Under the pieces are notes generated by a model, which was not told the DNA's origin, ran no database searches, and worked only from the letters and a program-made list of their open reading frames with translations. Shown in pieces: positions 12,301 through 60,188 of a DNA stretch of 64,000 nt; the first letter of the stretch is position 1; each line of letters starts with the position of its first letter. This DNA is from Liolophura sinensis (Eukaryota > Mollusca > Polyplacophora > Chitonida > Chitonidae), in assembly GCF_032854445.1 (NCBI RefSeq), contig NC_088300.1, positions 36,065,608 to 36,129,607 on the forward strand, read 5' to 3'. Both the position numbers and the translations under genes were made by a program.

Positions 12301-15300
12301 TACATCACACAATTTTGTTTTGTATGGAATATAACTATTCATACTATCGATGGTGATACAGCTGCCATTATTCCTGGACAGTCCCAAGTGGAGAGGGGTC
12401 TAGTGGTTAAAAGTATTAGTCTTTCAGGAAATATGAGGGTAGGATAAAATGTAGCCTTGGACTAGCAATTTGTGGATTCCCGGGCTTTCACTCTTGGTGA
12501 TGGTAAAGGGTCGTTAAAGCTTGTGTGGCTGTTTTAATCATCTAGGCATCAGTGAAGACCACTTCCACCAGTATGATGTGTACATCTCTGCCCCAGTAAC
12601 AGTTGATCGGTCATTTTTTCCCCAAATAGATGGAGAAAATCTGTTAGTAATATACGGTAATGTGTTACTTGCCAAAGGTCATGCAGTGTTCTCTCTGGAA
12701 TCTGACCTTTGCACAAGTGAAATATTCTTAAGTTTGCTGTTAAACACCAATCAATTAATCAATCAGTCAGTCAGTCTTCTCAAACATAACTCCTGTCTGA
12801 TTTTCCTGCGTGAATTTTCCACATACAGTGGGGGAATTTGTTGTCTGTCATGCTGGATGTTCCTTGTGATGAAGAGCTCCCTGCAGAGACTAGACAATGA
12901 ACAAGGTGTTAAGTAGTGACTTGTCAGTTTTAACATGTCATTAGAGGTCAAGGAAATGTTGAAGATCACACAGATATACAGGTCTTGGCCCTGCCCCAAC
13001 AAACAGTGATAGGCTATAATACTGATTTCAGTTTCCATGACAGCATAAGTTATAGACTTACTAAAGGTCTCTCAGCAACCTGCGGATGGTCGTGGGTTTC
13101 CCCCGGGCTCTGCCTGGTTTCCACCCACTATAATGCTGGCCGCCGTCATATAAGTGAAATATTCTTGAGCACGGCATAAAACACCAATCAAATAAATAAA
13201 TAAATAAATAAATATCGACTTACTGTAATTCTGCAACCTTTCAACATGTTAAACAAGGTGTCTGTTTAATCTTGTTCTTAATGTACGTGTATTATTCTGT
13301 ATTTACTGATAAAATTATACTTCTTGTGTAGTTTGGTAGTTTTGTCCCCAAAGCTAAATTTAAAGTATGCATAAATTGCACTGAAAGCTGCTTTTTTCTA
13401 TGCGAAAAGGTTGAGGGTATACATACATGTATGTCGAAATGACGGTTTTTATATGAGGAACAGCGGTCCGGGAGTGCTTATTGCACATATATTGGGTTTA
13501 ATCATTGTTTGTTACATACGGGGCCTCTGTGGCTCAGTTGGTTAGCGAGCTAGCGCAGCGTAATGACCCAGGAGTCTCTCACCAATGCGGTCGCTGTGAA
13601 TTCAAGTCCAGCTCATGCTGGCTTCCTCTCCGGCTGTACGTGGGAAGGTCTGTCAGCAACCTGCGCATGGTCGTGGGTTTCCCCCGGGCTCTGCCCGGTT
13701 TCCACCCACCACAATGCTGGCCACCATCGTATAAGTGAAATGTTCTTGAGTACGGCGTAAAACACCAATCAAATAAATAAATAAATAAATAAGTTTGTTA
13801 CATACAGTTAGGTAATATCCATGCTAGTGCATGTGATGAACTATAGAATTAATGCAGTTGATGCTGGTTTTATGGTCACGTAATGAGGTTTACAACTGAT
13901 GCATCAACATGGTGAAAACATTTGTCAGCCTGATCGTAATCGAAAAAACAGGCAATGATGGAGATAAATCAGTAGGATTATTCTTACTCTAATCCAGTTC
14001 TGACGGATAAAATATTTATATGATTATCACAGTTTACCAAATTCCTTTTATGAGTTTTGCAAGGGTAATTACTACTATAGTGATTCATTGTCAAGAAAGG
14101 CGCAAAACAATATAACACTTTTTATGTTCCATTTCCAGTATATTTTCAACAACAAAATATTTAATAAAATACTACACCCCATTTGTGACTATGATTATAC
14201 TTCACAAGTTCCTGTATACATAGTTTGTGATATTCTTTTTCAAGGTTGGATTGTCTTTACTAATTTAAGTTCTCAGTTATTTAGGTTACTTCTGTGTATT
14301 AAATATGCACGCATATTTTTAATAATTCCAGAGACATTTCCACTCGATTCATCAGAACAGTCACCAGATTTTATTGTCTGGTTTTTAATTAGATTTTATT
14401 AACATAATGTCTGTGTGTGTTTGTTTTCAGCCTCAAGAGATTCAGAAGGTTGTTCTCAAATGTATCATAAACAGTATGCTAAAGGACAAACGGTAAGTTT
14501 TGTAATCATGTTTATCTGGTGGTGTAACCATGTTTATCTGGTAGTGTAATCATGTTTATCTGGTGGTGTAATTGTGTTTATCTGGTGGTGTAATCATGAT
14601 TATCTGGTAGTGTAATCGTGTTTATCTGGTGGTGTAATCATGTTTATCTGGTGGTGTAATCATGTTTATCTGGTAGTGTAATCAAGTTTATCTGGCACTG
14701 TAATCATGTTTATCTGGTGGTGTAATCATGATTATCTGGTAGTGTAATCATGTTTATCTGGTAGTGTAATCATGTTTATCTGGTAGTGTAATCGTGTTTA
14801 TCTGGTGGTGTAATCATGTTTATCTGGTGGTGTAATCATGTTTATCTGGTAGTGTAATCATGTTATCTGGTGGTGTAATCATGTTTATCTGGTAGTGTAA
14901 TCATGTTTATCTGGTAGTGTAATCATGTTATCTGGTGGTGTAATCATGTTTATCTGGTAGTGTAATCATGTTATCTGGTGGTGTAATCATGTTTATCTGG
15001 TAGTGTAATCATGTTTATCTGGTGGTGTAATCATGTTTATCTGGTAGTGTAATCATGTTATCTGGTGGTGTAATCATGTTTATCTGGTAGTGTAATCATG
15101 TTTATCTGGTAGTGTAATCATGTTATCTGGTGGTGTAATCATGTTTATCTGGTGGTGTAATCATGTTTATCTGGTGGTGTAATCATGTTTATCTGGTAGT
15201 GTAATCATGTTATCTGGTGGTGTAATCATGTTTATCTGGTAGTGTAATCATGTTTATCTGGTAGTGTAATCATGTTATCTGGTGGTGTAATCATGTTTAT

Positions 15301-21300: not shown

Positions 21301-24300
21301 AAATGCAGTTGTAGGGGCAAATAAATGTTATAAAACAATATGTCTGGTGATAAAACATAATTTCTTTTCAGTAGTATATATTCCTACCTTCCAAACAAAC
21401 TCAAAAGCCCTTTCTAAGATGAATAGAACTCTCAGAACCAGATAAAATGGGCAACTTAGTCATGACTGAAATTAACGGTCGTTTACCTGGCGGGATGAAT
21501 TTTGTATTTGTTCTCAATACCCTGTTCAAGTTTCGAGAAATATGCTTAGTATAAATGTTACAGCTCGATAATTGGTATAGACTGAACTAAGACATAACCC
21601 TGATGACACATATAGTATGATGTTACCTTTTCTCCACAGAACCCCCAGTTTAACAGCCTGTCCACCTATGTGATATTTGCCCATCTCCTCCGCCAGGTTG
21701 CTGCTCTCACAGATCATGATCATCATTACCTCGTTCACTGGCTTAGAAAGTTAGTGCAATTTTGTGACGTAATGAGAATTTTATTATTGTTATATAAGGT
21801 GCCGTACTGAAGAGTTGCTAGAATAATAGTAGGCTGTGTAGTTTTGCATGCGAGGAGTTGTTCAGACGTTCAGTTTAACTAAAGAAAACTGCAAAATAAA
21901 ATCTTTCTGATTTAGAAGAAAAAAGCCTGCCAGCAACTTGCAGATGGCTCTGAGATCAGTTAGCCATGTTCCCAGCTTAGCTTCCACATTAAAGGAGAAG
22001 AAAATTTAAATATCAATCAAATACCATTGAAAAGAGTATGTATTTCCTCGCAGTTGTATGCCATAAAAAAAAATTCTAATATGCACCTCAAGTTGATAAA
22101 TTATAAATAAAGTCAGCTCCAAAGTCCTCTGTGGGTGACTCCATTTTGCCTAAGAACTAGTCCTGAAGTCTTCTGTGTTAGGAGGAGATTTGCTGTCAGG
22201 AACTGCCGAAGTGCAGTTCGTACATTTCCTGTAGAATTGTTCTTCTTGGTTGCGAACAGTACAGTTTGTTTTCCACTTGACGATCAGGAAGCCGGAATGT
22301 TGGATGTAATGTTACATGAACAAGCATTCAGTTTTAACGACTCTCATTGGCTGAGAGGTAACACACCCCCAGCATAAATTACAGGGTGTTAAAGATGGAG
22401 GACGCAATGGACTTTTCTTCTTCTTCTCCTTTAACTGCTCTGAATGATTACATTCACTAAACTGTGACTCGGTCCTGTCATCTGTGCTGTCTCCAAAGTG
22501 CCAACACCACAAAAAGAGGTGTCTCATGATCTTTGAAGTAATTCTGAATTCATATCACCTCATTATTTGAGAATAATAAAGACCATAACATCGCAAATAA
22601 CACAAATGTAACCGACAAACCCACGCAGACAGCATCAGAACTTCGCAAGCCGCCGTTTTCAAATCAGGTGACTCGGTTGCTAGGGTGGAGTCGACTGCTC
22701 TTCCCAAAGTTAAAACCATCTTTTTTCACAATAGAATCAATTATATGTCATTTCTGTTCATTATTTACACATAAACTAATGTTAAGACTCGGGAACAATT
22801 TGTCAGTCGCCCTTCAGATGGTGTACAACTCACTGGTTACAATCATATCATTCCACGAGTGTATCTTTTTCCGGACGATGCCAAGTGCGGCCGGCTCGAA
22901 TTGAAAATGGCTGGTTATAGCGAAGTTTGACTTGCCGCCGATGTAACAGATACATTTGTGTTAATTGTGACGGTATGGTCATCCATATTATTCACAAATC
23001 ACTAGGTGATATGTAGTAAGAACTACTGAAGGATTACAGGAAACATGGTTTTATAGCGTACAGCTTTGACGTGTTGAGAACAGCACAAGCAGAAAGATTG
23101 AGTTCCAGGTTAGTAAATAGTACAGAGTACAGATCTCTGTTTCTGAAAGCTAGGCTGGGAAAAATGATACAGATGACCGCCATCATACAAGTGAAATATT
23201 CTTGAGTGTGGCGTAAAACACAAATGAAATAAATGAAAGAATAACCATCTTTTTCAAACAGAAGATTTTGTCCAGCAAAATTCGTTTTGTTTTATTATTG
23301 TTGTATGCATTTGTATGAATGTGTAAAATTGTAACATTTTCACTGAGATGTATCTCATTTCTTTTTTTTTTTTTCAGGTTACCTGTCAAGAAGTTTAAAG
23401 ATATTTTACAACGTCTGCATAATTTTATCGCGTGTCGTCTCTTTCCGCCAAAGCAGCAGGATTTACCTGCCCTTGCTAAGTGTACTTGGTGGATTCCGAG
23501 TGCAACCAAAGTCCTGGCCTTGATCAGTAAGAGTCTTTAAAAATAATAAGTGATAATAGGAAACAGAAGTCATTATAAATTAGAGGAATTAAGTAGGGCA
23601 GCTTTGTTATGACCTAAAATTTCTGAAAAGACAGGCCAAAAACAGCAGTAAAGGAAATACTGTAAATGCCCTAAAAAGTTTTCAGAAAAATTCATTTCTA
23701 GAGGCAAGTGCAGTTCATAAATTATTACTTTTAGTGATGAAACTTACATATTTTGTTTAGGATATCATTCAACTTTGGAAAAAATGGGGTCAAATCAACT
23801 TTTTAAGATCTGCTCTTGGAATTAGATAAAGTGAGTCAGTTTGTCGGACAAGGATGATATTTTAGGTCCTAAATTGTAGGTTAAAATGAAAGTAATATTG
23901 TATGCTATTTCACTATTGGATAAACCTAAGAGTTGGTACAAAATCTGTACGCAAAACACATAACATTGAAGTCAATCGATGTATTGATGTCACATGTGTT
24001 GTTCGGGGATGCCTGGTGGACATGAGTACCCAGTACCTGACATGATGATAGAACCAGCCAATGACACGATCACTTCTTTCAACATCTTTCCTACATGCTA
24101 ATGTAATAGTGAACATTGAATGTAATATAAATGTTTATTTTTTTTTTTTTTTTTTTTTTTTTGATTGGTGTTTTACGCCGTACTCAAGAATATTTCACTT
24201 ATACGACGGCGGCCAGCATTATGGTGGGTGGAAACCGGGCACAGCCCGGGGGAAACCCATGACCATCCGCAGGTTGCTGCCAGACCTTTCCACATACGGC

Positions 24301-27300
24301 CGGAGAGGAAGCCAGCATGAGCTGGACTTGAGCTCACAGCGACCGCATTGGTGAGAGACTCCTGGGTCATTACGCTGCGCTAGCGCGCTAACCAACTGAG
24401 CCACAGAGGCCCCTATAAATGTTTAAGTCTGTTCTTGTATATGTAACCAAGTAGACTGAAGTACGTGTCTCTAGTGTGCATGGTGTACAGACCGTGATTC
24501 CCTTCAGACACGTATATTATATCCCTGACCTCATTCCAACTTAAAGTACATCTGATTTAAATTAGATATTTTCAAAGTGTTGGGGAAAGTTACTTGTCAA
24601 GTAAGTAAAAAAAAATAATAACATGTGCACGAACCATACTTCCTGAAACATTGTCTTCATGAAAGAACACCTCATGTTATTACATTAATTTGATTATCAT
24701 GGTGAAATATTAGCTTTTTTTCCCTTTGTTTGTGTGTTTAGTCAAGTCCCAGTGGTAGAGTAAAAATCTTCACGCAATAGACAAGACCTGAAGCATGACA
24801 GAAGTGTATACATGTACAGCACTCAGCTAGATAATGCACGGTTTCTTTCTTTGGCAGAAATTGAAATTCATCCCTACTGTGAACACCTTAAATTTAGCAG
24901 AATTTTTAATCAACTAGTAACTGTGCTGTAATAAGTTAGTGAAAAATCACAGGAAATTATATGTGGTTTACAATATTTATTTATTTATCTGATTGGTGTT
25001 TTAGGCCGTACTCAAGAATATTTCACTTATATGACGGCAACCAGCAATATGGTGGGCGGAAACCAGGCAGAGGCCGGGGGAAACCTATGACCATTTGCAG
25101 ATTGCTGTCAGACCTTCCCACTAACGGCTGGAGAGAAAGCCAGCATGAGCTGGACTTGAACTCACAGCAACTGCATTGTTGAGAGGCTCCTGGGTCATTA
25201 CGCTGCGCTAGCATGCTGACCAACTGAGCCACATTTCATGGAAGATCACTAATTGACCTGGTAGTGCAAACTGTAGTACATAAAGGGGATTACCCTAATC
25301 CTTCAACCTTTTCATCCATCTCTGACCAATATTTTGAAACATTCTGAGAGAAGTATGAGGTGTAGAGAAATAATCATATGAAACTTCCATCTTTAGTGAC
25401 ATGAATTAATCATTTTTGTTGTCATTTTCATAATAATTGTATGTATAAATTCAGCTGAAAACAGTGCTTTAGTGGTTGAAAAGGTTAAAGATTTACACTA
25501 GCTGCTGAAAAGTTATATACTGTAAATCACATAATTTCATGTGATTTAATTTTCACTAACTTGGTGCTGCAGGGCGATTAGTTAAATTAACTTGCATGAC
25601 ATTATTGGTGGTTTACTGTTTGTGTCAATTTCATTTTCTGCAAATGAAAAAACTGCATTGTTCGTAGTACTTGCGTGAAAGGTACAAGAGTCAAGAGACA
25701 AAAGAACGTGTCGGGCAGTTTTATTTGAACTTGAGTCAGTAACCTGACAATAATAATAATCCGACAATTAAAGGTGACAGGTTTCTGTAACTGTTATGTT
25801 TGTGTATTTTGATTTTGCCTGGCTGTACATTTGCATGTATATGTTGTGTGACAGATGCTGCTAACAACCTGGCCAGCCCGTTACTTTTGCCTTACCCTGA
25901 GCTATATAACAGTACCTTAGACCACCTGGACCTAATGGCAGAGTACTACGCCTGGCAGAACCAGAGCTCACATGCAGGGTATGTACTGGGTATCCAAGAT
26001 CAGAAAGAAACTGTCTCATGGGGACAGCCTCATCGTGACAAGCCAAACAGATGGATTCAGTGCAATTGATTGATTACATACTGATGGACATGTAAAATCT
26101 TTTACAAGACATCTACAAAAGGATCCCTAAAAAAGTATTAAACTGTATTTGAGTTTTAAGTATGAATGTGTATGGTTATCAAGTGCTGTTGAAATTGTTT
26201 TTTTCTGATTTTTCTTTCTGTTACAATTATTAAATGTTCAAACTGGCCCAATTTGGTTAAGTACAAGTCTTACCTCTGCTGTTCAGCTCAAGACCAGTGA
26301 TTACACAGTTCAAATCCAGCTCTTGCTGGACCTGCTCAAGTACCTGTCATAAACCAATGACTCACTCAAAGTACTATAGTTTCTCTACCCAGATCATCTT
26401 GTTTGCACTAATATTATAGTGAAAGTTTCTTGTACAGCATTAAACCCCAATCAAATCAATAAATCCAGTGTATATGTTGTGAGACAGGCATAAAAAGTAC
26501 TGGAGATCAAAAGCCTTTTATTGACTTGAGCAGTTACTTACTGTTTGAAGTTTCTTCTTGTGCCGGAAACACAACATGCAGACCACTTTGGAAGCAGTAC
26601 TCTATGTACCTAAGCTAGCTCTGTTTGGGAAGTACATGTAAGGTACAGCTATCGGCACATATATTCCTCTTGTTCATGTTTATAGCGAAGAAGACCAACA
26701 CTGCAAAACATTATTTGACATACTCTGATTCTTTTTCGATCTTTTAACAAGTTTGCAAAGTGTATTCAAACATATTCTGAAGGGGGTATTCTAAACTGAT
26801 AAAATTACACTGTTCTGAAGCTCTGAAAGTGACCAATCCAACCAATATAGTTTTGTCTCTATGATAAAAAAAATGTGAATAAAATGCACTGATAAGTGCT
26901 CTTTGTATATGCGTGAATATCCCTTACATGTGGCATTATTTGAGAAATTAAGATGAACTGGGTGTGCATGCTTGGATGCATTAAAAAGATTAAACATGTA
27001 GTCTTAATGGAGGTAATATTAGTTTGCATGGGCATCCTGTCTGTTGGCATGTATTAATGGCATGCAATCAGCATATATATGCACAATAAGGCAGTCAGCC
27101 ATTCAATTGTTCCGTCTGTTCTGTTGGATGTGCTACACTCGGGTACCTTTCCAAAAATTAATTTTCTTCTCACATATTTCAAGACATGCAGTGCGCTGTC
27201 AGTCAAGAGCTGTATTTGCCCAGCTGGTTCCTTCCACTTTTGCCCCTTGCAGAAAGGATGACTTAAACAATACACCGATTTATAACGTTGCAGTGAACCT

Positions 27301-33300: not shown

Positions 33301-36300
33301 AACAAAATTGTTGAAAGACTAGGATGCCAACAATGTGACTTCTCAGTTTATTTGGAGTATCTGTACTTTCACAAATTTATCCCTGACTTTGCCTCTTCAG
33401 ACCTTTACAAATAGTACATAAGACATTGAGGAAGTGCACTGTATATATGCCAGATGTATCAGTTGTTCGGGGTAGGAGAATAGACGTGATTGCACAAATT
33501 GTACTTTCCCATGAAGACTATTATCACAACCACAGTAACTGATTGTACTGCCTGATAATGATTGTAATCTCTGGTAATGATTGTAATGTAATTGTAGTGA
33601 ACCCTGTCTTCCTCTATTCGTGAGGCCTTCCAAGTAGTTAGCACGCCAGCGTGGCGCAATTAGCCAGGAGCCTCTCACCAATGTGGTTGCTGTGAGTTCA
33701 AGTTCAGCTCATGCTGGCTTCCTCCATACATGGGGAGGTCTGGCAGCAACCTGCAGATGGTTGTGAGTTTTCCCCATGCTTTGCTCGGTTTCCTCCCACC
33801 ATAATGCTGGCCGCCGTCCTATAAGTGAAATATTCTCAAGTACTGCGTTAAACATCAATCAAATAAATAAATAAATCCTCTAGTTTCTTCTGGCGCATAT
33901 AATTATCTGCTGATGCAATGATTTCACAAGGAAAACCACAAATGTGATCATTTAACTTTCCATGAATGAATTTTTATATTTCAGATCTCTTTCAGTGAAT
34001 TGGGCCAGACAAAAACTCATAACCTTAAAACAGACGGAGACAAAATCCCTGTCACCAACAAGAATCGCAAAGGTCATTTTGATAATGTACCATTAAAATT
34101 CATTGTCATCTTTGTAGAAAAATACATGTTGGAAAACAGACTGTTTTTCTTAAATTTTAAAGGGGTCTGTTAATTTAAGTTATAGACCAGTATTTACAGT
34201 GAAAAAGAAATGAGGTTTCAATGAAGAATTCGATTTCTTCATAGCTCAGGAGGGTGAACACTTCTGCTGTAAATTCAGATACCAAGAAGGTGCCAAAGGG
34301 CAGAGTTTCTATGTGGCCTGACTCCATTCATTAAAGGGAAGAACTCTTGAGTACGGCTTTAAACACCAGTCAAATAAATAAATGAATAACTTTTGACATT
34401 ACCCTGTTTGCAGATTATGTACAGCGGTATGTGGACTATGTGCTGAACAAAGCCATCTTCCAACAGTTTCAGGCCTTTTACCATGGGTTTCACAGTGTGT
34501 GCGCATCTAATGCTCTCATTGTAAGTCAAAAACTATTTCTTTTGCCTGTGAGTTGGCGTGGCCTAATCACAGGAAAATGTTTGCGACTTACAGCTCAAAA
34601 GTGCTAAAACAATGGAGTTATGAGAAGTGTGAAGAAGCTTCCTCATTTGTATCCCAGTTCCTCATTACTAGAGTACCCTGATTCCTCAACCTTCTTGCAC
34701 ATAAAAGAGCAACTTTTTGAGTGCTATTGATAGAAATTTTATAATTTGTTTTTGGGGACAAAACTGCATTGGTTGGATTGGTCAATTTTAGGCCTTCACA
34801 GAAAATATGATTTTTTCAGTCTGCACAGAGAAATGCTCTCAGAGTTTTCTTCAATAAACGCCTTGGAAAAATGCGAAAAGGTTGAAGAAGAGTTTCTTGA
34901 GATCAAGTTGATGGCAAGGAACTATGGAAAAGAGACTTGTGGCTAGGTCTGACCATAGTGAGATTGGTAGTGTGCATGTTACAACTGTATGTTAACTTCA
35001 GAGTACATGTAATGCTCTGATCAGTTGTGTTACACCATTTGGATGTGTTCAGAAGTCATCAGCTATGGCTGAATTTTTCTAATTTGAACAATACTCCTGA
35101 CTACGCATACTTTAAAGTAATTTTATGAAAACTGTCAATAAAATATTATTGATTATCTGTGTAGCTTTATGAAAGCACTTTTCAGTATGAGACTTGAATT
35201 CCAGAAAACCAGTTTCCTATCTCCACTAAATGAAACTACTGGGTGGTAAAATTCCTAAGAGGATTTTCTCTTGATGGAAGTGCACATTACTTGCACATGA
35301 TGTCGGCACCTTGAGTATCAACAAGAGACAGCTTATGCTGGCTTCCTCTGTGGCCATACATGGGAAGATCTGTCAGCAACCTGTGGATGGTTGTTGGTTT
35401 CCCCCAGGCTGTGCCTGGTTTCCTCCCATCATAATGCTGGCCACCGTCATATCCGTGAAATGTTCTTGAGTATAGCGTAAAACACCTATCAAATAAATAA
35501 ATAAATAAATAAATAAATAAGAGAATCAACTGCCAGATTGTAATGATGAGAATTACAGCGTTTCTTGTTTCACAAACTCTTATGTGCCTGTTGTAGATGT
35601 TACGGCCTGAGGAAGTGGAAACACTGGTGTGTGGTAACCCTAACCTGGACATGGCTGAGCTGAAAAAGGTGACCGTGTATGACGGGTTCCACACTCAGGA
35701 TCAGGCAGTTAGGTGGGTGTTCACTGATAACTTCATGTCGCAGGTTCTTATGTGAATGTGTGAATTTACCAGCAAATGAATGGGAGGCTCAAGGGAAGAG
35801 TTCACACAAAAGGGTCCAGATCGCAGCAGAACACACATACACCAATAATTGTGACGTGCTAAAGGGAAGAATACGAGAGTTCATGGCTGTGGTCCACTCG
35901 GGGACTCTCAATCTCGGGGTTTTCTCAATCCACCCACAGAAGTGATCACTTTCATACAAGTGTGAAATGTTGTTGATTTCCTTGTTGAACATCAGTCATT
36001 CAGCCAGTCATTTCATCAGTCCATAACATACAAAATGTGATAGAAAAAAACAACAAAAAGATTATGGTAGGACTTCAGGCCATAACTGAAAGTATAAGAG
36101 ACTTTTAACAGTAACTCATGTATTTTAAAGTCCATAGTAAAGTCCTAAAGGTGAAATATTCTTGAATATGGCGTAAAACTCCAGTTAAATAAATAAACAT
36201 TAAATAAATTTCAAGAGTACATATATGGGCACTCTTCATGGTCAGATTTCGTATCTATAGAGATATATTACTCACAACTTGTTCTCTATAGTTTTTTGCC

Positions 36301-43624: not shown

Positions 43625-44487
43625 TTCTGTATGATGCATTCTGATTCACCCTTCAGTATAATGCCTAGATTCACCATTCAGTTTGACGCATTCAGATTTA
43701 CACTTCAGTACGATTCATTCAGATTCACCCGCCTATACAAAGCATACAGATTCACCCTTGGGGTATGAAGCATACAGATTCACCCGTCAGAATGATGCAT
43801 TCAGATTCACCATTGAGTATGATCCATTCAGATTCACCATTCAGTAAGAAGCATACAGATTAACCCTTCAGGACGAAGCATACAGATTCACCTGTCAGCA
43901 TGATGCATTCAGGTTCACCCTTATGTATGAAGCATTCAGATTCACCATTCAGTATGAAGCATGGTTTCATCCTTCCGTGTGATGCACACAAATTCACCCT
44001 TCAGTATTAAGCGTCAAGATTCACCAGTCAGTATGATACATTCAGGTCCACCCTATTGTATAAAGCATTCAGTACGAAGCATAGACTCACCATTCAGTGA
44101 GATGCATTCAGGTTCACCCTACTGTATGAAGCATTCAGATTCAACCTTCAGTCTGAAGCATACAGATTCACCTGTCAGCATGAAGCATTCAGATTCACCA
44201 TTCAATATGCAAGATAGATTCACCATTCAGTGTAATGTACACAATTTCACCCTTCAGCATTTAGCATACAGATTCAAGGGTAAAATATGAAGGATTCCGA
44301 TTCACCCGTCAGTAATGAGTATGATGTATTCAGATTCACCATTCAGTATGAAGCATACGGATTCACCCTTCAGTGTGATGCACACCAATTCGCCCTTCAG
44401 TATTAAGCATTCAAATTCACCATTTCAGTATGAAGCATACAGATTCAACCTTCGGAAAGATGCATAAAGATTCACCCTTACGATGCA
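43625..44487 (+). repeat. 27-bp tandem array (~32 copies) at the ERI1 3' end
   Basis: Unit gaagcatacagattcaccct then tcagtat, with gatgcattcag variants. Because 27 is nine codons, stretches stay open and give a false frame with repeated HSDSPFS-like peptide. It ends about 70 bp from the ERI1 stop codon and may be in the ERI1 3' UTR. Confidence 0.92.
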
Positions 44488-45063: not shown

Positions 45064-48000
45064 CTGCAAAACACAGAACAGAACAGAAAATCGGTTCAAT
45101 TACATAAAACCAAAAATACACTTCGGCTGTAAAACTGAGAGCACACACAGCCATGACTGTGTTACACAGTACAAGAGAGAACATAAAATAAAACAGCCTG
45201 CACCAATTTATGAAAGGTGAAATACGTTTCCTGGAGCATGCACTACCACAACATACTGAACAGCTGAGAGAGGATGATGCGTACAAGGAACAATATACTC
45301 ACCCATCTGTGGCTACAGCAAAAGACCTCTCTGAACCTAGACACTGGGACTCCATCCATTTCTCCATGGATTTTAACACTAATGGGAACGAGTCAGCTGT
45401 GTCCACCTGACTCTGAAAAGAAAAAAAAAAAAAAAAAGAATGATAATATGTCAGTACATGGACGTGAGATTACTTACTTGGGAGGTTAGGGTGTGGTCTA
45501 CATCTTCAGTCACCTCTTCAATATACCCCAGATTCTGCTAATTAGCATAGAGTTTTGACAGGGAAAGAAGTTATCCACACACCTGACTAACCTCTTTTCA
45601 AATTTGGGATCTCCCGAACAGTATTTTTCCTTACCAACGGAAGGGGCTCATTTGGGGGCCTCCGATATGTGTGAAATGGGTTTAACACAAAACATAAAAA
45701 GTTGGTGATTCTTTCAAAACATATAGGTTTAAAACCAAAATCTTCTGTTTTGCTCATGTTACAGCAGATATTATGATGCAGTAATGTCTATTTTTGTCAC
45801 TGTGGTTATACCAGTCCATGACTGAATTAATTTAATTCACTAAACATAAACTAAGAGATCTACGTAACTGCTTGAGCTGCTATAGCTATAGTCCTTGGAG
45901 GTACAGGACTGTGTCCATGTTTCGTCAGTGTTTGTAAACATTTCACATGGGTTATAACCAGAGCCATTCTCACCAATTTAATTTTGCGAAATTAGGTGTG
46001 TTTTTAAGGTATAGTGTGGCGAAGAGAATTGGAGTAATGAGCAATTAATTTGAAATCTCCACTCCCAATGGAAACACAATGACACTGGTTATCAGCTCAA
46101 TAAGGTAATGAAAAATATGAATCAAGTAAAATGTGTCATCTGAAAAGCGCTAAACTTTTGGCTAAATTCAGTACTGGTGGTTCATTTAATTTTAGGTGAT
46201 TCACTACTTATACTTAAACCCTTGATTATCACATAAAAGTTAAAAACTGTGCTGTAGTAATGTAATTCTTCAAAATGTGAACGTCAAAATCGTACAGTGC
46301 AGGGCATTTTTCCAGACATCAGCAGACTGCTCTCAGAGGTGAAGCTGAATCCTACTCTGACTCACCTGTGTTATCCCAGTTAGATTATAGAGGTGAAGTC
46401 GAAGTACAGCCTACTATGACTCACCTGTGTTATTCCAGTCAGGTTATAGAGGTGAAGTTGACAAACAGCCTATTCTGACTCAAGTGTGTTATCACAATCT
46501 GGTTATAGAGGTGAAGTTGACGAACAGCCTACTCTGACTCACCTGTGTTATTCCAGTCAGGTTATAGAGGTGAAGTTGACGAACAGCCTACTCTGACTCA
46601 CCTGTGTTATTCCAGTTAGGTTACAGCAGAATTTACTCAGCTGGGGGTTCAACAATGGCCGACAATAACTGTGAAACTCATCTACCTGTATCAACAGCAA
46701 AGCAAAAACACACCTTTCATTATCAAACACAGCTATATGTATAAAAGCAGAGAACTGTTATACATCCACAAATGGACTAATCATAGACAAACGTTCGGAC
46801 TTTTTCAATAATTTCCCAGAAAATTAAATGTATATTTAGACAATAAATACAGGGTGCATGAGCTCTAGGAATGAAAAGCCTTCTACTGCAACAAGATGGA
46901 TCAAATGCTACATATGTACTTTTTTATAGTCTTTAGTATGATCAGGCAATATGGCTCCTGTTTGAATGCAGTTCTGTTCTTTTAAGATGTTAACGCGTTA
47001 ACTGCTGACTATAGCTTGTAGAGTCCACCCATTTTGCCATTCTAGATTTTTAAGCATATGTCAAGGTTTGTTTACGCAGCTATTTACCACCATATACTGA
47101 GTGTCTTCCTGTGATTCTCTCCGGGAATATCCTTTATGCAAAATAGGTTGTAGCTGCCAGTTTGATATAACTGGTATATTTGGTACCTGAATAACGAGTT
47201 TTGTTGTAGTGGTATTTGCGCAAAAGACGGTGTCTATGAATGCAGGCGAAGTCATGGAACTGTTAACAGAGACAGATAATATTGAGAGTGATGAATCAGA
47301 AATGGTACTGAGTCAGGATGATAGTGATTTTGAATCTGAAACTAGCAACGAACAGTCTAGTGACGACTTTGACACTGCTGAATCGTCCGATTCTGCTGCC
47401 TCGAGTGATGAAGCGGTGTGGTTTGAAGCATGTGACTGGCGTAGGATCTGTGGTGTTTGCACAAATGAACAGGGTGAGGCGAACTCCACTTTTCTTGTCA
47501 TCATTTTCTGACATAAGATAGTACGTCTCTTTCTTGCGAGAGAGCGGTTGTTTTCTTATCGGTGAATATGTGGAGTGATAATGACTAAAGAAATGTTGTA
47601 GCAAAGCCCATTCAATGAGGGCAAATAACTCTGTCTAATTTTTTGGTCAGCGGTCGGTGCGTTAAACCTCAATAACAATATAACAGTAGGACGCAGACAA
47701 CATAAAACATGTCCCGCAAGTTCATAATGTTACATGCAGCTCTCTTCCCTGCTGGTGCCCAAACTACATGTATTCACCACATAAACCACAATGAATGATA
47801 TAAATGACCTATCTATATTATGAGTCAATGTACAAAGAGTGAGTGAGTGAGTGCTTGGGGTTTAACGTCGTACTCAACAATTTTTCAGTTATATGACGAC
47901 GAAGGAATCCTTCGGGTGCATGTACGTGTAATGTGCCTCCTTGTTGCAGGACGGATTTCCACCGCTCTTTTATTTAGTACTGCTTCACTGAGACAACTTA

Positions 48001-51000
48001 CCGAAGGCAAGCTGCCCCGCCCCAGCCATTATACTGATAATGCTGAACGCCAAGCGAGGAAGTCACAACTTCCTCTTTTAAAGTCTTAGGTGTGACTCGA
48101 TCAAGGATTGATCCTGGATCTACCGGTCCCGAAGCGGATGCTCTACCAACTGTGTCAATGTACAAAGAAATGTAAAAGCTAGCTGATTTATTTGCTGAAC
48201 TTCTCACCTCATAATACAACATTCAGAGGTGGTTACAACTACTCGACAATTCTGATAACAGAGCTGCTACAAACTCACAATCTTGTTCTGTTGTACATCT
48301 ACCAGAATGGCAGGAAATTCTATGATTTCATGGTTGTAGTTTTCCACATCCTCTTCGCATGTTGCCTCGAAGTCTATGACCAGAAGATAATCATAAGGAG
48401 TCTTGCTACCCTCCGGGGGATGAACACGAGCCTTCATAAGCTTTTTACGCTTGTAATAATTCTTTATCCTTTTCTTCAGGATATCTTTCATGCCCCTGTA
48501 GGAAAATATATGATCAAAACACATATGAGTGAATGTTAAAATACAATTATGACTTCATAAAATGCTATCAGTTTCAAGGATTGATTCTTGTTTAATGCCA
48601 TGCTGAAAATTTTTTTCACTTATCTCCTGGAAATTACTGAACAACCACAATGTCCCAGGGCCAGACAGCCAAAAGCTAAGTCAGAGCCATAGTCGGTTGA
48701 CCCAGGAGCCTCTCACCAATGGGGTCGCTGTGAGTTCATGCTGGCTTCCTCTCCGGCCATAAGTGGGAAGGTCTGCCAGCAACCTGCGGATGGTTGTGGG
48801 TTTTCCCCCGGGCTGAGCCCGGTTTCCTCCCACCATAATGATGGCATAAGTGAAACATTCTTGAGTACGGCGTAGAACACCAATCAAATAAATAAATAAA
48901 TATACTATTAGAGTCATATGAGGCTGATACTGCTGTTTGAGATATAAACACATGAAATATATAACACTTTGAATGTTATGCTTGTAGTGTTTATTGTTAT
49001 CAAACATGTTGAAAATGTTGTTCACTACATCAGTGAACAGGTGAAACAATATTAACCCATCAGAAGAAAATGAAACGAGTTCACAGAAACTTAAATTCCC
49101 ATTATTACAGAAGCATACAAAAAATAAAACTTTAAAATTAAGCAACATCTACATGTATATTCCATATCAGGGCCATATCTAGAAAAACATTAAATTTTAA
49201 AAATTTAACTCCTAGTGAAGTTTTCTAAAAGCTCTTAAGTCTGACTTTGTGAATGAAAACATAACATTTTATTGGTAAACCATCATATTTTGTTTAATTT
49301 ACTTGTTTAGTTTGGGCAGCCACCAGTTTGGAGCCCAAATGTTTTCCAGAACCAAAGTGACTCCAAATATGGCCCCGCATGTGTAGTAGACCTACATGCT
49401 GTACAAACCTTGTGTCCAGCCGTAGCTCAGCGCATTTTGCCTGAAGCTGATCCTTGGTGAGTTTGTTAATTTCTCCATTGATTAAGGACAGTTTCTTATA
49501 TACTGGATCACTGTACTGGCCATCTCGCACAGCTTTAGGCTTCTGCTGATAATCAGTGATTGGAAAAAGTGAATACCATCTGATATCCATAATGAATACT
49601 GATATAGGGCACAACTGATTAATTTATGTATTTAATATTTGTGTGATGTTTCATGTCATACTCAAAAATACATGTATTTCACATATACAAAGGTGGCAAG
49701 CATTACAGTGGGAGAAAATCGGGCAGACCCCACTGGACATCACAAATGATTGAGGAACAGTAACAATAAAACACAAAAACAACCACACATGTACATGTTT
49801 ATAAACTGCATATTGATCTGAGCAATGTTTAAAGGGAATTTAATACTTCGGGTTGCTGTCATGTGGTACAGTGATATCACTTTATTGAAAAACCAGCTTT
49901 TCAAAATGAACATCTGAGAAGGGACTCCTTGACTAACAAAAGGACGAACCTAGTCTTAACAACTACCATGGTATACCCTATTATGCCTATACAGTATAGA
50001 ATATTTCACAAATGTACACCTGCATGGCAGTAGCCCCATTGATGAGTAAGGAAACAAGTAAATTCCTCGACCTCAGTCGCAGTGCATCTGAACATGCAAT
50101 CTTCACTGGTTTATCTATGGTATACGTTTAATTCAGATGGGTTTAACAGTTAACATCATAGTACTTTGTGTTTTGTGTTTTGCCTATTTATACGTATATA
50201 CATGTAGGTTAAAAGAATGAAACCACCACCCTTTCCCATGTAACTGCACTGCATCCTGACATAAGTCTGCAGCATAACAAGTGAGAACAAATTTGTTCAT
50301 GCAACTGTGCCAGCCTCAAAACCCCAAGAGGAGTATAAAGAATGCATTAGAGAGGCAACAAATAAGTGGCTGGAAACTACCTGACTAGCTACTGTGTGGA
50401 CATCCATCAAGGCAACAGATTGAGAAAACCTGAGCACAAGTGCTTGAATTGGCTCTGGAGCCATGTTCTTTGAGTCCCCAGGCCTAGTTGTAAAATGTAA
50501 GTCTCACATCTCGCAACATGAAGTGTTGGGAGAGTTACTGGGAGAAACTGCTACTAATGTGTCGGATCGAGGGTAAGCCACATGTACTGCATCTTCATAC
50601 GCGCGTTAAATCTTCCCTAGCCAAAATCTCTGCAAACCGAGTGGATCCAATAATGAACTAACCTCTTCTGAGCCTCGCCGAACCAAAAACAATCCATGAC
50701 AATAGCACAAATTCACAAAAAGATACATTTTCGACACTACATACTCGTTCTGATAGTCATGCATACAAGTGATGTGATCTACTCTAATCGCCAATCTGGC
50801 TGGTCCCCTCCCAGTGATGTCAAATGGTGCGAATCGTTCGTTCTCAAAAGTGATTAAAATGGTGGCAGATAGCTTATGGCCACAGTGGGTGTTGTGTCGA
50901 AAATGTATTTATTTTGTGAATTTGTGCGCACTATATGCACACAACAAAGAACCACGGTACCTTTCATACCTTCCCTGCAAAGAAAACGAGAAAGCCCCTC

Positions 51001-51616: not shown

Positions 51617-54600
51617 GTGATTACTGACTCCTATTCCTAATCATTCTTTTGTTGCACTCATCTTTGTCTCATAGTGGCGCTTTGGTATTGCTTGGTCGTT
51701 CCTTTGGCAATCACATTCTCGATATATGTCAAACCGTGACTTAGCCGAGTGAGAGAACTGTCAAAACATAATGCGTGTTTTTTTGTTCTGTTTCTCTTTT
51801 TATGTTACTTGACGTTTTAAGCTGTTCTCACATATTTTACAAACTGCAGTCCAGGTTGTATTGTGAAACCAAGGGTTGCAAGCCTGCATGGGACGCTTTG
51901 ATTGAGCACTACCGTACGTTCACACTAATTTCAGACGCATTTTTCGAAAATGTACACCATGATGCCTTGCAGAAGATGTTGTCTTAAGTCGTACACTCTC
52001 AGTGGGGAGTAGGGGATTACCGGTAGTCGATCAATGACAGTACTTCACATCTCTGTCACACCTCAGTGAGCATCACCAGCTTGGCAAGACGGGGAGAGAC
52101 ACTGCCGGGTTTTGAAAAGACAAATCTTTTTGTGTGATTGGATGGCTGTTTTTCAATCATGCCAATGTCATTTAAAGCTCAGCACACATTGATAGATCTA
52201 TATAAACTACAAAAATGCAGAAAAACGGACGCTTCCGGAAATTTTTGCATGCAACACGTGGGTGCGTCACATTTGTAACGTGTTGATTAGCTGTCTTCAA
52301 CTGAACGTTGACCATTAGAATCTTTTATTGGATATACATGGCATTGTCAGAACATGTGGTCTTTGAAATTTGAAAGCTAATTATTTGTCATAACAACTAG
52401 TGACATTTACAGAAAGATTATCTGAAAAAATGAAGTTTATTTTAAACATCGCTGTGTAAACTGGCTGGCAGTAAAACACTATATGAGCGCACACTAGAAA
52501 TAATTCTGGAGAAACGACGACAACAGCGACCTGACTCGATATTAGCCTTTCTTAAAGAAAGTCAAAACTTGGCACAGTTTGACATATATACATAGCTACT
52601 TCTTTATTTTGCATTATTCCCGAGCCCATAATATTGGCCTTGATATGTGGTGTGACATACCTTGTTCATGTAGACCTACGTCAGAAACGGACACATGTTC
52701 CCAGGCTTACCAGGCTTGGAGAGTTGCGAATGTTTTATTGCCTACCGGCTGGTGTCAATACCCATTCAGTGTAGAATTTTGTGTTCTGTAATGTTTGCCC
52801 AAATATGAGGAAATCTTGGCTTGGAATCTAATTAAGAACACCAGCATTATTAGTTCATATCCATTCTTGGGACTCTTGATGTGGCCTCAGGTGTCTGGTG
52901 TTGGCTCCTGCTGATCAAGCCCTGTTTAAAAGCTTTTATTGTCACATTAAAAATAAAACCTGGTTCAAAAGATTTTTCACAGTAGATAATCGTTAGCTAT
53001 TTCATGTACTTGTAAGCCCACCAATGATTTGGGAAAGCTTTTTAAAAATATATTATCCGCAGGATACATACAAGCTGTGAATTTCGATAATATTTTAATC
53101 CTGCTTTTTGCTGTAAGTTAGTTATGTGGTAGTAAAGTGTAGAACTCAGTACCAGTAGCGGATGATGTGCATGGGGTCTTGATTTTTGTAATCCACACAC
53201 ACATTGAATATTTTGTCTCACTTACGTTCAACTGAGGAGTTTGTCATGATACTTCAGTTTAATTGAAGTCTGCGTGAACTGAGTGAAGTTTGGGAGGAAT
53301 GGGTGGTGAGGTACCTGTTAATGTATTTACTGAGGCCATTTGTAACTTTTGAGCAAACCTTTAGAGTGATTAGTAGATAAATACTCATGGGAATTTGACA
53401 ATTCTTCTTTTTAATTTAGACGTTTATTAGGACACTGAACAAATGATGTGTATGGTTTTGCATCTGCAAATGTCCTCTCAGAGTCTTGCATGTCCCAGAG
53501 CCTTGCATGCCAGATGAAATCTACATGGTTTGTACTTGGCGGGAACTGGGAAATCGGGCCTGTCATCTTCTCCGTTGGATCTAACCACTTAGACTGTGTT
53601 TTCTGAGTGAACATTGTTCATATATTTTCTGTGAAATTACCGATGCTATTCACAATAACATATTCCTCACAGCTTGATATTCTCTCAAGGTCATCTGGTA
53701 TGTATATCGGTGGATTTTGAATGCATTTGTTTGATAAAATTTAAAACGTTGTTTAGTTAATTTAAAATGACATCGTGAGTTGCCTTGTACAAGCTATTGG
53801 GAAAGGCTTGCTTTATAGGCAAGGGTAGGTCCATTCTCCAGTATGGCCATCTGGCACGGCGATGTCGCCTACTGTGAAACTTCTCTGATCTACCCGCTTA
53901 CTTTCAGTGTGTCCCAATTAGCAAGGGCCTGTAATTAGTGAGAGCGTACGGTAGTATTTATTTATTTATTTGATTGGTGTTTTATGCCGTACTCAAGAAT
54001 ATTTCACTTATATGACAGCGGCCAGCATTATAGTGGGTGGAAACTGGGCACAGCATGGGGGAAACCCATGACCATCCGCAGGTTGCTGGAAGACCTTCCC
54101 ACGTACAGCCGGAGAAGAAGCCAGCATGAGCTGGACTTGAACTCACAGCAACCGCATTGGTGAGAGACTCTTGGGTCATTATGCTGCGGTAGTGCGCTAA
54201 CCAGCTAAGCCACGGGGTATGGTAGTAGGCCTTATAACTGTGCAGTGAAGAGGGATGATTAGGATTCCCCTGTGCACACTAACACGTCTGCTCCTACTCC
54301 AGTCTGGTCTCTTGAAAAAACAAAAAACAAAAAGAAAAAAAAATAAATAAAAACAATTGCTGGCACTATGGAACATAACTAAGAGCTAAAATGGAAAGCT
54401 ACATGCTACTTATTTTACATATGGGTATCTAGAATCTTTAAGCAAGATGGAATATTTTGGTCCAGTTAGTGGTGCACCATAGCGATATGGTTGGAGTGCA
54501 ACACTAAACTTTATTACTCCATCTCAAGCTGTCGTTTCCTCCACGCACATGCTTGCCATTGCCTACAATCCGGTTCAAACATTTACGTTTATTGCGAGTT

Positions 54601-57600: not shown

Positions 57601-60188
57601 CTTAATTACGTCAATGAATTTATTTATATAGTGCTATTGGTATTCTTTTGGTCTTGAACTTCATCTTCGTCATTACACTTTATTTGCTTTGGTCAAGTTT
57701 TGGTCATCATTAGGTAGCAATTAATCTCTCTATCTGTCCATCAAAAATCTTGAGAATGGATTTAGAAAAATCCAGGGAATTGTTTATCTCCTGATGAGAA
57801 GGAAGATGATTGAAAATGAATGTTTGAGGGATGATTTCACTTTACTTTTTAATATCTGCAAATAATTAGGTTATTGAATGAATATTGGCAGATTTGCATT
57901 TTTTGTGTCTTTGGAGTTGAGCGGCTTGAAAATAGATTAGACTGTAATCATTCAATAATATATTTATTCTATGACAAACATCAATCATTTCAACCAGGCA
58001 GCAAAATTTAGTCATCGAAAATGAAAATTTGACCCAAAAATTTAAGATGGTAAAACTCATAGTAATATTTTTATACATCTCCGCCAATAGAGGGAGCGTA
58101 TTTGTCCTTTTGTCCATCCGTCCGTATTTGTGTCTGGGCTATAGCTCCATTTTCGCAGCTGTCATGGTAACCAGATAGCCATTTTTTTTATATATACTAT
58201 ATAAATAGATATGATTTTGTGTCTGGGCTGTAACTCCAACTGTTTTCTGCATAGAGTTTTAATTTATGGTGGATACATACATACACAGATGCTGATGTGT
58301 CGCGACTCACACAGTTGTCATGATTACCGGATCACCAGTTTCCCTATATATACTATATTGATAGATACATGTATGATTTTGTGTCCGGGCTATAACTCCA
58401 GCTGTGTTCAACGTAGAGTTTTAATTTTTGGTGGATACATGCATACACAGATGCTGGTGTGTCGCGACTCACATTTGTTCATTTCCACAGTTGTCATGAT
58501 GACCGGATCACCAGTTTCCCTATATATACTATATTGATAGATACTTGTATGATTTTGTGTCCGGGCTATAACTCCAGCTGTGTTCAGCGTAGAGTTTTAA
58601 TTTTTGGTGGATACATACATACACAAATGATCGTGTGGTGCGACTCACATTTGTTCATTTCCGCATTTGTCATAATAACTGCATCAACAGTTTCCGTATA
58701 TGTGCTATATAGAGAGATGATTTTGAGTCCGGGCTATAACTCCAACTGTTTTCCATGTAGAGTTTTAATTTTTGGTGGATGCATACATAAACAGATGATG
58801 ATGTGTCAGGACTCATCGTTTTGTCATGGTAACAAGATAGCCATTTACCTGATATATACCATATAAATAGAAATGATTTCGTGTCCGGGCTACAGTTCAT
58901 ACTGTGTTCCCCATAAAGTTTTCATTTGTGGTGGACACGCTTGTCCACTCACGAGGTTGTCATGGTAACCACATACCATCCATCATCAACACCCATGAAA
59001 ATTCCCCTCAGGGGTTATGCTCACCACAACGCTGCTGGTATTCTTTTATACATGTCAAACAAATGCATTTGTTGGGGCATGTGTTGTGTTCACCCAAACT
59101 CTTGTTTATGAATGACGCAAGAGTGTACAGAGAGAAGAGACAAGTTGTCATTGAATGAGGTCATGATAACTTGTTGCAAATGCAGACAATGTGAGCGTTG
59201 CTAAGGGCGCTGTACAATTCAAAACACATACAGTAATTGCCACAACGCTAAAATATAAGCAAATGTGTAAAATGTATAATCAGTAATAAATATTGGTAGG
59301 AGCAGCGTACCTTAGTTAATTGTGGTCAGCATAAATGATCTTTAACCTACTATTCCTAGTTAAAATTCATGTATTTGGCATTTTGACTCCTTTCAACGTA
59401 ATTCATGTATCTCTGACACTATGCTGACAGATTAAAGGAGTCTGTATGCAGGGATGTAATGGCTTACCGTTCACAATGCCTGACTAGAATGAACGACATT
59501 GAATTTACTTTCTTAAGCTTAATTTTATACTTTAAGTTTTACGAATGTTGTCTCCAGAATTGTTGGCCATGATTTGATGTATATAAATCTAGGCTTTGTG
59601 AATGGAAAGACCTACTGCAATGACTTCAACAACTACATGGTGTTGCTTTGCGTAGCCTCATGTTTTTATTTCCCTTTACTAATGCTGTTTGGACATCTTG
59701 ATTTGCACCTGTACCTGCACGGGTGTGTTTCTCTTACCTAATTATTAGCTAGACTGTTCATATTTGATATACCCTTTCTTTCCGCTATTGTCATGGAATA
59801 ATTTTTGAAAGAATATGGCTGTATTTTGTTTCCAGATTTTAAACTACTGTATTTCCTTGTCTGTGAGTGTGACTGTGTTAGCAGGTCTAAGCTATCAGGT
59901 ACATGTATATGTGGGTGTGTTCTTTAATAATATTGCCCATAACTACAAAGGTTTTTTTTTGTAAACATCTAGCCTAGCACCTGTGTTTTTTTCTGGCCTA
60001 CCTTGTCTATAACATATCCCTGATCCGCAGCTGCCCTGGACTACTGCACCCAGCCTGACACCCGGTGTGCGCGAGCCCGCCGCACAGACCCAGGTAAAGA
60101 GGAGGAGCTGTACTTCTGTGATAACCTGCACCACTGTCAAAACCACAGCCTCACCATCAACGACACCGTAGCAGAAATGTGTAAAATG
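51531..60188 (+). CDS. Secreted/membrane cysteine-rich glycoprotein, three-finger (activin-receptor/Ly6-like) ectodomain, partial
   Basis: Four exons join in phase to 253 codons and continue past the window. The protein starts with a signal peptide (hydrophobic VWLCYAVWSAFLC, likely cleaved after VLA, residue 32, split across exons 1 and 2). It has about 18 cysteines after that point and six N-glycosylation sequons (NSS, NIS, NFS, NAS, NHS, NDT). FCCKEDNCN near residue 170 is the CC....CN box that closes three-finger domains of activin/BMP receptor ectodomains and Ly6/uPAR proteins. A second Cys-rich block, YCTQPDTRC...ELYFCDN, resembles the C.xP..VC...C pattern of type II TGF-beta receptors. 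No transmembrane or kinase segment is inside the window. A receptor serine/threonine kinase ectodomain is my first guess, a Ly6-type protein the alternative. Confidence 0.65.
51617..53950 (+). other. Gene 3 intron 1, first part: nothing recognised
   Basis: AT-rich. Short frames here (for example near 51775 and 52579) have no acceptor, donor and phase combination that fits the gene. Confidence 0.4.
53957..54216 (-). mobile_element. SINE-A, full length, reverse, with TSD
   Basis: Complete from the (TTTA)n tail to the head ccagctaagccacgggg. Duplication gtacggtagta (53946-53956) and gtatggtagta (54217-54227), one mismatch. Confidence 0.88.
54935..55038 (+). mobile_element. SINE-C tail just before gene 3 exon 2
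   Basis: gtttccttcccataaaactg, aaaaattcttgagtgtgatg and gaactaaataagcaaat: the SINE-C 3' region, ending about 22 bp before the exon 2 acceptor. Confidence 0.5.
55060..55438 (+). CDS. Gene 3 exon 2: Cys-rich ectodomain
   Basis: Acceptor ctgttgtag, donor ATACAG|gtaaat. Encodes DISCMVGNIDSRELMKEYSC, a polar His/Ser-rich linker, ITHCYVFKYQLVKMLEQ and NFSCDYQNLCQNQ. Open throughout 379 bases with three sequons. Confidence 0.8.
55632..55760 (+). repeat. Dispersed repeat D, copy 4
   Basis: acattttcccagtaggatat, atcctaccttgcaaccacct, agaattctcagaatctggca and atggcaacttagtcatc match copy 3 in reverse over about 100 bp. Confidence 0.7.
55960..57230 (+). mobile_element. Element with ~145-bp diverged inverted repeats in gene 3 intron 2
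   Basis: The left arm (about 55960-56105) and right arm (about 57085-57230) are inverted repeats, diverged but clear. For example, ggtgggtatttggg at 56080-56093 is the exact complement of 57089-57102, and tctttgatatttttttttgg pairs with the ...aaatattgaagacca side. The interior is about 1 kb with a 123-codon frame (56506-56877) that I cannot place. No target duplication found. Confidence 0.6.
57454..57589 (+). CDS. Gene 3 exon 3: CC....CN box
   Basis: Acceptor tgttttccag, donor AAAAAGG|gtaggt; enters in phase 0 and leaves in phase 1. Encodes IRYNGIDGELFCCKEDNCNK, then RQQLCYNASNDGTTK. Confidence 0.82.
58128..58990 (+). repeat. ~165-bp tandem repeat (about 5 units) in gene 3 intron 3
   Basis: tgtgtccgggctataactcc recurs near 58130, 58219, 58380, 58556, 58726 and 58881, each followed by agagttttaatttttggtgg, gcgactcaca and ttgtcatgatgaccgg. 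The first interval is short (89 bp). The frames across it are repeat, not gene. Confidence 0.9.
59160..60030 (+). other. Gene 3 intron 3, last part: nothing recognised
   Basis: Unique-looking AT-rich intron between the ~165-bp repeats and exon 4; no feature supported. Confidence 0.4.
60031..60188 (+). CDS. Gene 3 exon 4: second Cys-rich block
   Basis: Acceptor ctgatccgcag, donor AAAATG|gtagga; phase 1 in, phase 0 out. Encodes ALDYCTQPDTRCARARRTD, ELYFCDNLHHCQNHSL and TVAEMCKM. The next exon lies beyond the window or is too short to see. Confidence 0.8.

What the first reader, a model, noticed from the sequence alone, without database searches (positions are those of the whole stretch)
46335..46624. 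Five tandem copies of the ERI1 exon 4 5' splice site
The 59-bp repeat unit contains the exon's last codons (LTGITQ), the donor gtgagt and intron sequence, repeated at exactly 59-bp steps; four of five donors are intact. Using any downstream donor shifts the frame (59 is not a multiple of 3), and reading through the first donor meets TGA within the unit, so alternative use would lead to decay. This could buffer donor loss or set the level of ERI1.
Basis: partly seen in the sequence, partly recalled or inferred. Interest (0 to 1): 0.72.

Follow-up and report, generated by a model that had tools for sequence, protein, structure and literature searches.

The report
Repeated splice site in ERI1 gene
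A short stretch of DNA at the end of one exon of the ERI1 gene, including the signal that marks where splicing should begin, is repeated five times in a row; this is a real but known kind of repeat (called a "mirage" in lancelets) that splicing most likely ignores beyond the first copy.

Summary
In detail: on the minus strand of an animal ERI1 gene, a 59-bp unit made of the last 25 nt of an exon plus the first 34 nt of its intron stands five times head to tail (46337-46626). Four of five copies keep CAG|GTGAGT, among the best 7 of 7799 GT sites of the window for U1 pairing; copy 3 is dead. ERI1 reads through intact when the first donor is used. The other three intact donors all lead to the same early stop, so the idea that they buffer loss of the first is not supported. 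Regulation through decay is possible but untested; I found no significant sign of selection on the spare donors, with little power. This fits a described kind: minisatellites spanning exon-intron boundaries ("mirages") in lancelet genes, for which the authors suggest that regular splicing goes on. I judge it a minisatellite at a splice donor, with donor 1 doing the work. The boldest untested reading is that the AG|GT units act as dual splice sites, as reported for polyubiquitin, so that over-long exons can be trimmed by whole units; the acceptor scores are weak. No RNA, second haplotype or species name was available.

The parts
46602..46685 (-). ERI1 exon (84 nt, phase 0 at its end) that carries the array at its 3' end; encodes VDEFHSYCRPLLNPQLSKFCCNLTGITQ
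46568..46626 (-). copy 1: true exon tail plus donor 1 (first intron base 46601)
46509..46567 (-). copy 2, donor 2 intact (first intron base 46542); holds the read-through stop TGA 46559-46557
46450..46508 (-). copy 3, donor dead (CAC|TTGAGT) and branch-point-like YTRAY motif lost
46391..46449 (-). copy 4, donor intact (first intron base 46424)
46337..46390 (-). copy 5, donor intact (first intron base 46365); 5-nt deletion
45303..45412 (-). next ERI1 exon; acceptor with long T tract, the best-scoring of the 77 AG sites from donor 1 to this exon

Best explanation
A minisatellite that arose when a 59-bp segment straddling the end of an ERI1 exon was tandemly duplicated and then amplified by slippage or unequal exchange. 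Donor 1 is the working site. Copies 2-5 lie in the intron as near-identical decoy donors that are mostly not used, and are tolerated because any use leads to an early stop and decay of that transcript. Shown: the array, the intact coding frame through donor 1, and the stop for donors 2, 4 and 5. Inferred: the mutational route, donor 1 preference, and decay of misspliced RNA.
For: Array and copy relations. Copies 2-4 share G at unit position 10 where the end copies 1 and 5 share A, as if inner copies arose later from one variant. A full 366-aa frame with donor 1 that matches ERI1. The window is rich in minisatellites: 15 arrays of period 11 or more, this one included, cover 6.0%, and 7 longer than 130 bp cover 5.5%, so of 9 ERI1 exon ends assumed about 0.49 (0.45 without this array) would fall in a long array by chance, selection ignored. 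The closest published kind, mirages in lancelet genes, is suggested by its authors not to disturb regular splicing.
Against: The four intact donors have the same predicted pairing to U1 (-12.2 kcal/mol) and are among the best 7 of 7799 GT sites of the window, so exclusive use of donor 1 is not explained by donor strength. From recall, not from a call: tests with duplicated strong donors often favour the downstream one. Exon tails of copies 2, 4 and 5 still encode NLTGITQ, which may be youth rather than constraint. At unit position 16 copies 3 and 5 share G against A in the others, which conflicts with the simple order of growth. No RNA data.
Confidence: 0.75

Rival explanations
1. Decay-coupled control: a fraction of ERI1 transcripts uses donors 2, 4 or 5, stops at the shared TGA and is degraded, so copy number tunes ERI1 level.
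For: Very strong spare donors; all three give the same early stop, 124-301 nt before the last junction.
Against: No significant conservation of spare donors between copies; copy 3 lost its donor; lancelet Adh and troponin C mirages are said not to generate aberrant mRNAs, and globin RT-PCR suggests regular splicing.
Confidence: 0.14
2. Dual-site array: each AG|GT is used as acceptor as well as donor, so 59n-nt mini-introns trim an over-long exon back to the normal one, with no trace in the mRNA.
For: Each of the 4 intact copies is CAG|GTGAGT with a YTRAY motif beginning 18 nt before the junction; removal of 59, 118, 177 or 236 nt between intact sites restores the exon exactly. Such an array is reported for human UBC, whose authors suggest that a strong donor may help a weak acceptor in the same site.
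Against: Acceptor scores are poor: -2.2 to -2.6, top 32-36% of 7301 AG sites, against top 0.05-1.3% for four of the five ERI1 acceptors scored (the fifth, an uncertain one, top 16%). Other AGGT sites of the window combine a fair donor with a much better acceptor (37661, 39793, 51174). The same paper finds that dual sites tend to have weaker donor scores than single-use sites, whereas these donors are near the best of the window. No clear pyrimidine tract; 59-nt introns may be too short. A YTRAY nearby is not rare by my own estimate (no call).
Confidence: 0.06
3. Assembly or sequencing artefact: one copy in the animal, five in the contig.
For: Tandem repeats are error-prone in assembly (general knowledge).
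Against: No two of the five copies are identical, and copies 3-5 carry private changes.
Confidence: 0.03
4. Raw material for a new exon: a unit is spliced in as a 45-nt cassette from the AG at the end of GTGAGTCAGAGTAG to the next donor, in frame with the exon before (length and frame counted by eye).
For: An intron-gain model in which a mirage repeat becomes an exon is drawn by others for lancelet globins.
Against: The needed acceptors score poorly (five sites, top 39-58% of AG sites); 15 open codons are unsurprising by chance (about even odds, my estimate).
Confidence: 0.02

Closest known systems
Mirages of lancelet genes (Adh3, globins BflGb6 and BflGb9, troponin C; similar repeats in PGBD5); PMC3087553 (passages and section 16 read) and PMC3902484 (passages read)
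   Same: Minisatellite-like tandem repeat spanning an exon-intron boundary, units of 10 to 160 bp, many with AG/GT signals; BflGb9 and PGBD5 involve the donor side of an exon as here.
   Different: Another gene (ERI1) and an unnamed species; five copies of 59 bp with four identical strong donors; splicing and copy-number variation are unknown here.
Dual-specific splice site arrays (human UBC, VCX3A); PMC10809524 (abstract, first part of the results, section 8 and discussion read; the UBC section itself not seen in full)
   Same: Tandem units each holding AGGT so that excision of whole units restores the message.
   Different: UBC units are wholly coding and a multiple of 3; here the unit is part exon, part intron, 59 nt, and acceptor use is not shown.
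Intron gain by tandem duplication of AGGT segments (Rogers model; ATP2A1, fission yeast 24-bp units); PMC4974935 (passages read)
   Same: Tandem duplication of a segment with AGGT creates competing splice signals.
   Different: Here an existing boundary was multiplied; no new intron is shown.
Internal tandem repeats at exon-intron boundaries in human segmental duplications; PMC2812944 (passages read)
   Same: Minisatellites at exon-intron boundaries.
   Different: Human paralogs with transcript evidence.

Membership tests
Mirage (exon-intron boundary minisatellite) | tandem repeat spans an exon-intron boundary | tested here: met
   25 exonic + 34 intronic nt per unit; the boundary is predicted from sequence, not from RNA
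Mirage (exon-intron boundary minisatellite) | minisatellite unit length (10-160 bp in published cases) | tested here: met
   59 bp; range
Mirage (exon-intron boundary minisatellite) | many units keep splice signals | tested here: met
   4 of 5 units
Mirage (exon-intron boundary minisatellite) | gene reads intact when the regular site is used | tested here: met
   366-aa frame, ERI1 match
Mirage (exon-intron boundary minisatellite) | inner copies homogenised, end copies excluded | tested here: inconclusive
   position 10 fits, position 16 does not, and inner copy 3 is divergent
Mirage (exon-intron boundary minisatellite) | length differs between haplotypes or cells | not testable with these tools
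   one haplotype only; no genome held
Mirage (exon-intron boundary minisatellite) | regular splicing in mRNA | not testable with these tools
   no RNA data
Mirage (exon-intron boundary minisatellite) | cephalochordate host (published cases) | not tested
   species of the window not given and not inferred
Dual-specific splice site array | AGGT core in tandem units | tested here: met
   4 of 5 units
Dual-specific splice site array | used both as donor and as acceptor | not testable with these tools
   no junction or lariat reads; acceptor score weak

The most novel reading that the evidence does not exclude
The array is a self-correcting splice device: because four of the five units are CAG|GTGAGT, any exon that overruns to a later donor can be re-spliced between units, removing 59n nt and restoring the exact ERI1 message, so that the array can grow or shrink without changing the protein.
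Probability: 0.06. Interest if true: 0.6.

Novelty: new member of a known kind. Interest (0 to 1): 0.33.

Why it matters
Four identical strong donors, at steps of 59 or 118 nt, are a natural test of how the spliceosome picks one among equal sites, and a case in which a splice boundary is caught in repeat turnover. If the units prove to act as dual sites, it would show how repeats can expand across a splice site at no cost to the protein.

Tried and rejected
Buffering of donor loss: rejected, since no spare donor yields full-length ERI1. Selection on spare donors: five column tests, four not significant (p 0.16-1.0); the one below 0.05 (donor plus CTTCACCT, p = 0.037) was chosen after seeing the alignment and is not counted. 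Donor hiding by RNA structure: each unit's TTCACCT can pair with the donor core AGGTGA. Local folding pairs donor 1 with the TTCACCT of copy 2 and donor 2 with that of copy 1 (pair probabilities about 0.41-0.73) and donor 5 with that of copy 4 (0.48-0.87), donor 4 with none above 0.13. A 6-nt complement to the donor turns up in only 191 of 5000 random 50-nt stretches, so the match is mildly unusual, but I noticed it after the fact. Against it, the whole stretch 46332-46685 is less stable than its shuffles (z +1.65, 95 of 100 fold at least as well), the ERI1 donor at 45302 is more closed than three of the four array donors, and the pairing does not single out donor 1. Left open as a lead. Synonymous bias between copies: among copies 1, 2, 4 and 5 three of four variable tail positions are synonymous (classified by eye; 18 of 72 single changes would be), but with the divergent copy 3 it is three of eight; dropped. 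Relatives: the 18-mer has 0 matches in viral contigs; 9 stretches in genome contigs matched a peptide pattern of ERI1 and 0 of 9 was confirmed; these collections are of viruses and of bacteria and archaea. Papers: ten searches were answered. No title in these listings concerns repeats at a splice site of ERI1, but no search joined ERI1 with repeats or mirages, so I make no claim that it is not in print. PMC8724738 (passages) was looked at for competition between equal donors and gave nothing used here. The acceptor model uses recalled metazoan frequencies and is rough. In one search the list of arrays was typed from the 23 rows after dropping 3 rows of period 1 or 4 and merging overlapping rows to 15.

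Full report
What is there. On the minus strand, five head-to-tail 59-bp units occupy 46337-46626. The first 25 nt of the unit are the end of a coding exon and the remaining 34 nt the start of its intron. Copies 1, 2, 4 and 5 read CAG|GTGAGT at the junction; copy 3 reads CAC|TTGAGT. The 9-mer CAGGTGAGT occurs 4 times in the whole window on both strands, all in the array. An 18-mer of the unit has 5 matches against 0.01 expected.

The gene. A coding model with exons 49590-49409, 48495-48279, 46685-46602, 45412-45303 and 45063-44556 gives a 366-aa open frame whose best solved relative is 4l8r, 3'-5' exoribonuclease 1 (E 3.3e-93, residues 25-300; that this is the human protein is recalled), with Pfam RNase_T and SAP domains. 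The start codon and first exon are uncertain, and the splice sites are read from sequence, not from RNA. The exon tail LTGITQ is the same as in the ERI1 chains aligned. The gene thus looks functional when donor 1 is used.

What other donors would give. Donors 2, 4 and 5 lengthen the exon from 84 to 143, 261 and 320 nt. All three reach the same TGA (46559-46557) and give 175 aa; the last junction of the model lies 124, 242 or 301 nt beyond the stop, so decay is expected by the 50-nt rule (established knowledge). Donor 4 keeps the phase (177 nt), contrary to the finding's wording, but the stop precedes it. None of them can replace donor 1, so the array cannot buffer its loss at the level of protein.

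Strength. The four intact donors have equal predicted U1 pairing, -12.2 kcal/mol; 7 of 7799 GT sites in the window reach that, 4 of them these. Strength therefore does not explain why donor 1 should be chosen. Context, such as exon definition and enhancers, would have to (inference). As acceptors the same sites are weak (top 32-36% of 7301 AG sites), though each intact copy has a YTRAY branch-point-like motif beginning at -18, which copy 3 lacks.

History. Copies 1 and 2 differ at 2 of 59 sites; against the consensus copy 3 has 8 differences, copy 4 has 4, copy 5 has 5 substitutions and a 5-nt deletion. Copies 1 and 5 share A at position 10 and copies 2-4 share G, which suggests later growth inside the array; position 16, where copies 3 and 5 share G, does not fit this simply. 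The sequence after copy 5 (CTGAG) and the start of copy 1 (CTGTA) share CTG (seen), compatible with slippage at a short repeat. Conservation tests give no support for selection on the spare donors, with little power.

Background rate. The window holds 15 arrays of period 11 or more, this one included, covering 6.0% of it. Among them is a degenerate 27-bp array (about 31 copies, 66% matches) that begins about 77 bp after the ERI1 stop codon. With 9 exon ends assumed for ERI1, 0.45-0.49 would lie in a long array by chance, selection ignored. One such overlap is not surprising in itself.

What it is. [quoted passage not shown] PMC3087553 (section 16 read) reports them in globin genes BflGb6 and BflGb9 and cites Adh3. 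BflGb6 had 6 and 3 units in two haplotypes, and the authors' RT-PCR suggested no interference with regular splicing, although they note that the signals could serve as cryptic sites. PMC3902484 (passages read) reports 60-bp and 108-bp repeats at splice sites of PGBD5, with differing copy numbers between two versions of the genome sequence, states that Adh and troponin C mirages do not generate aberrant mRNAs, and infers the same for PGBD5, for which it had little transcript evidence. The ERI1 array meets the structural features; the features that need RNA or a second haplotype could not be tested, and I do not claim that the window is from a lancelet.

The bolder reading. PMC10809524 (outline with abstract, first part of the results, section 8 and discussion read; [quoted passage not shown] In the ERI1 array any excision between intact junctions (59, 118, 177 or 236 nt) restores the normal exon. 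This would leave no trace in mature mRNA and so is compatible with normal-looking transcripts. Against it: the weak acceptors, other AGGT sites of the window with better acceptors, and that paper's finding that dual sites tend to have weaker donors. For it: the same paper's suggestion that a strong donor may help a weak acceptor. I give it 0.06.

Verdict. Real, neat, and a new member of a known kind. Most likely a minisatellite that happens to carry a splice donor, with the first donor doing the work.

Noticed in passing
43625-44479: A degenerate 27-bp minisatellite (about 31 copies, 66% matches) begins about 77 bp after the ERI1 stop codon, so probably within the ERI1 3' UTR.
   Followed up: no
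46568-46574 and the same place in each unit: TTCACCT, kept in all five units, holds a complement of the donor core AGGTGA and by eye resembles the U1 5' end; local folding pairs donors 1 and 2 with it crosswise.
   Followed up: partly
2048-2338, 11939-12304, 24052-24351, 35290-35694, 48684-49148, 53942-54278: Similar peptides (such as [30 protein letters not shown]; at 11939-12304 only in part) in open frames on both strands point to an interspersed repeat.
   Followed up: no
58205-58863: An array of about three 176-bp units (58310-58815) overlaps plus-strand frames of 110 and 149 codons without a stop.
   Followed up: no
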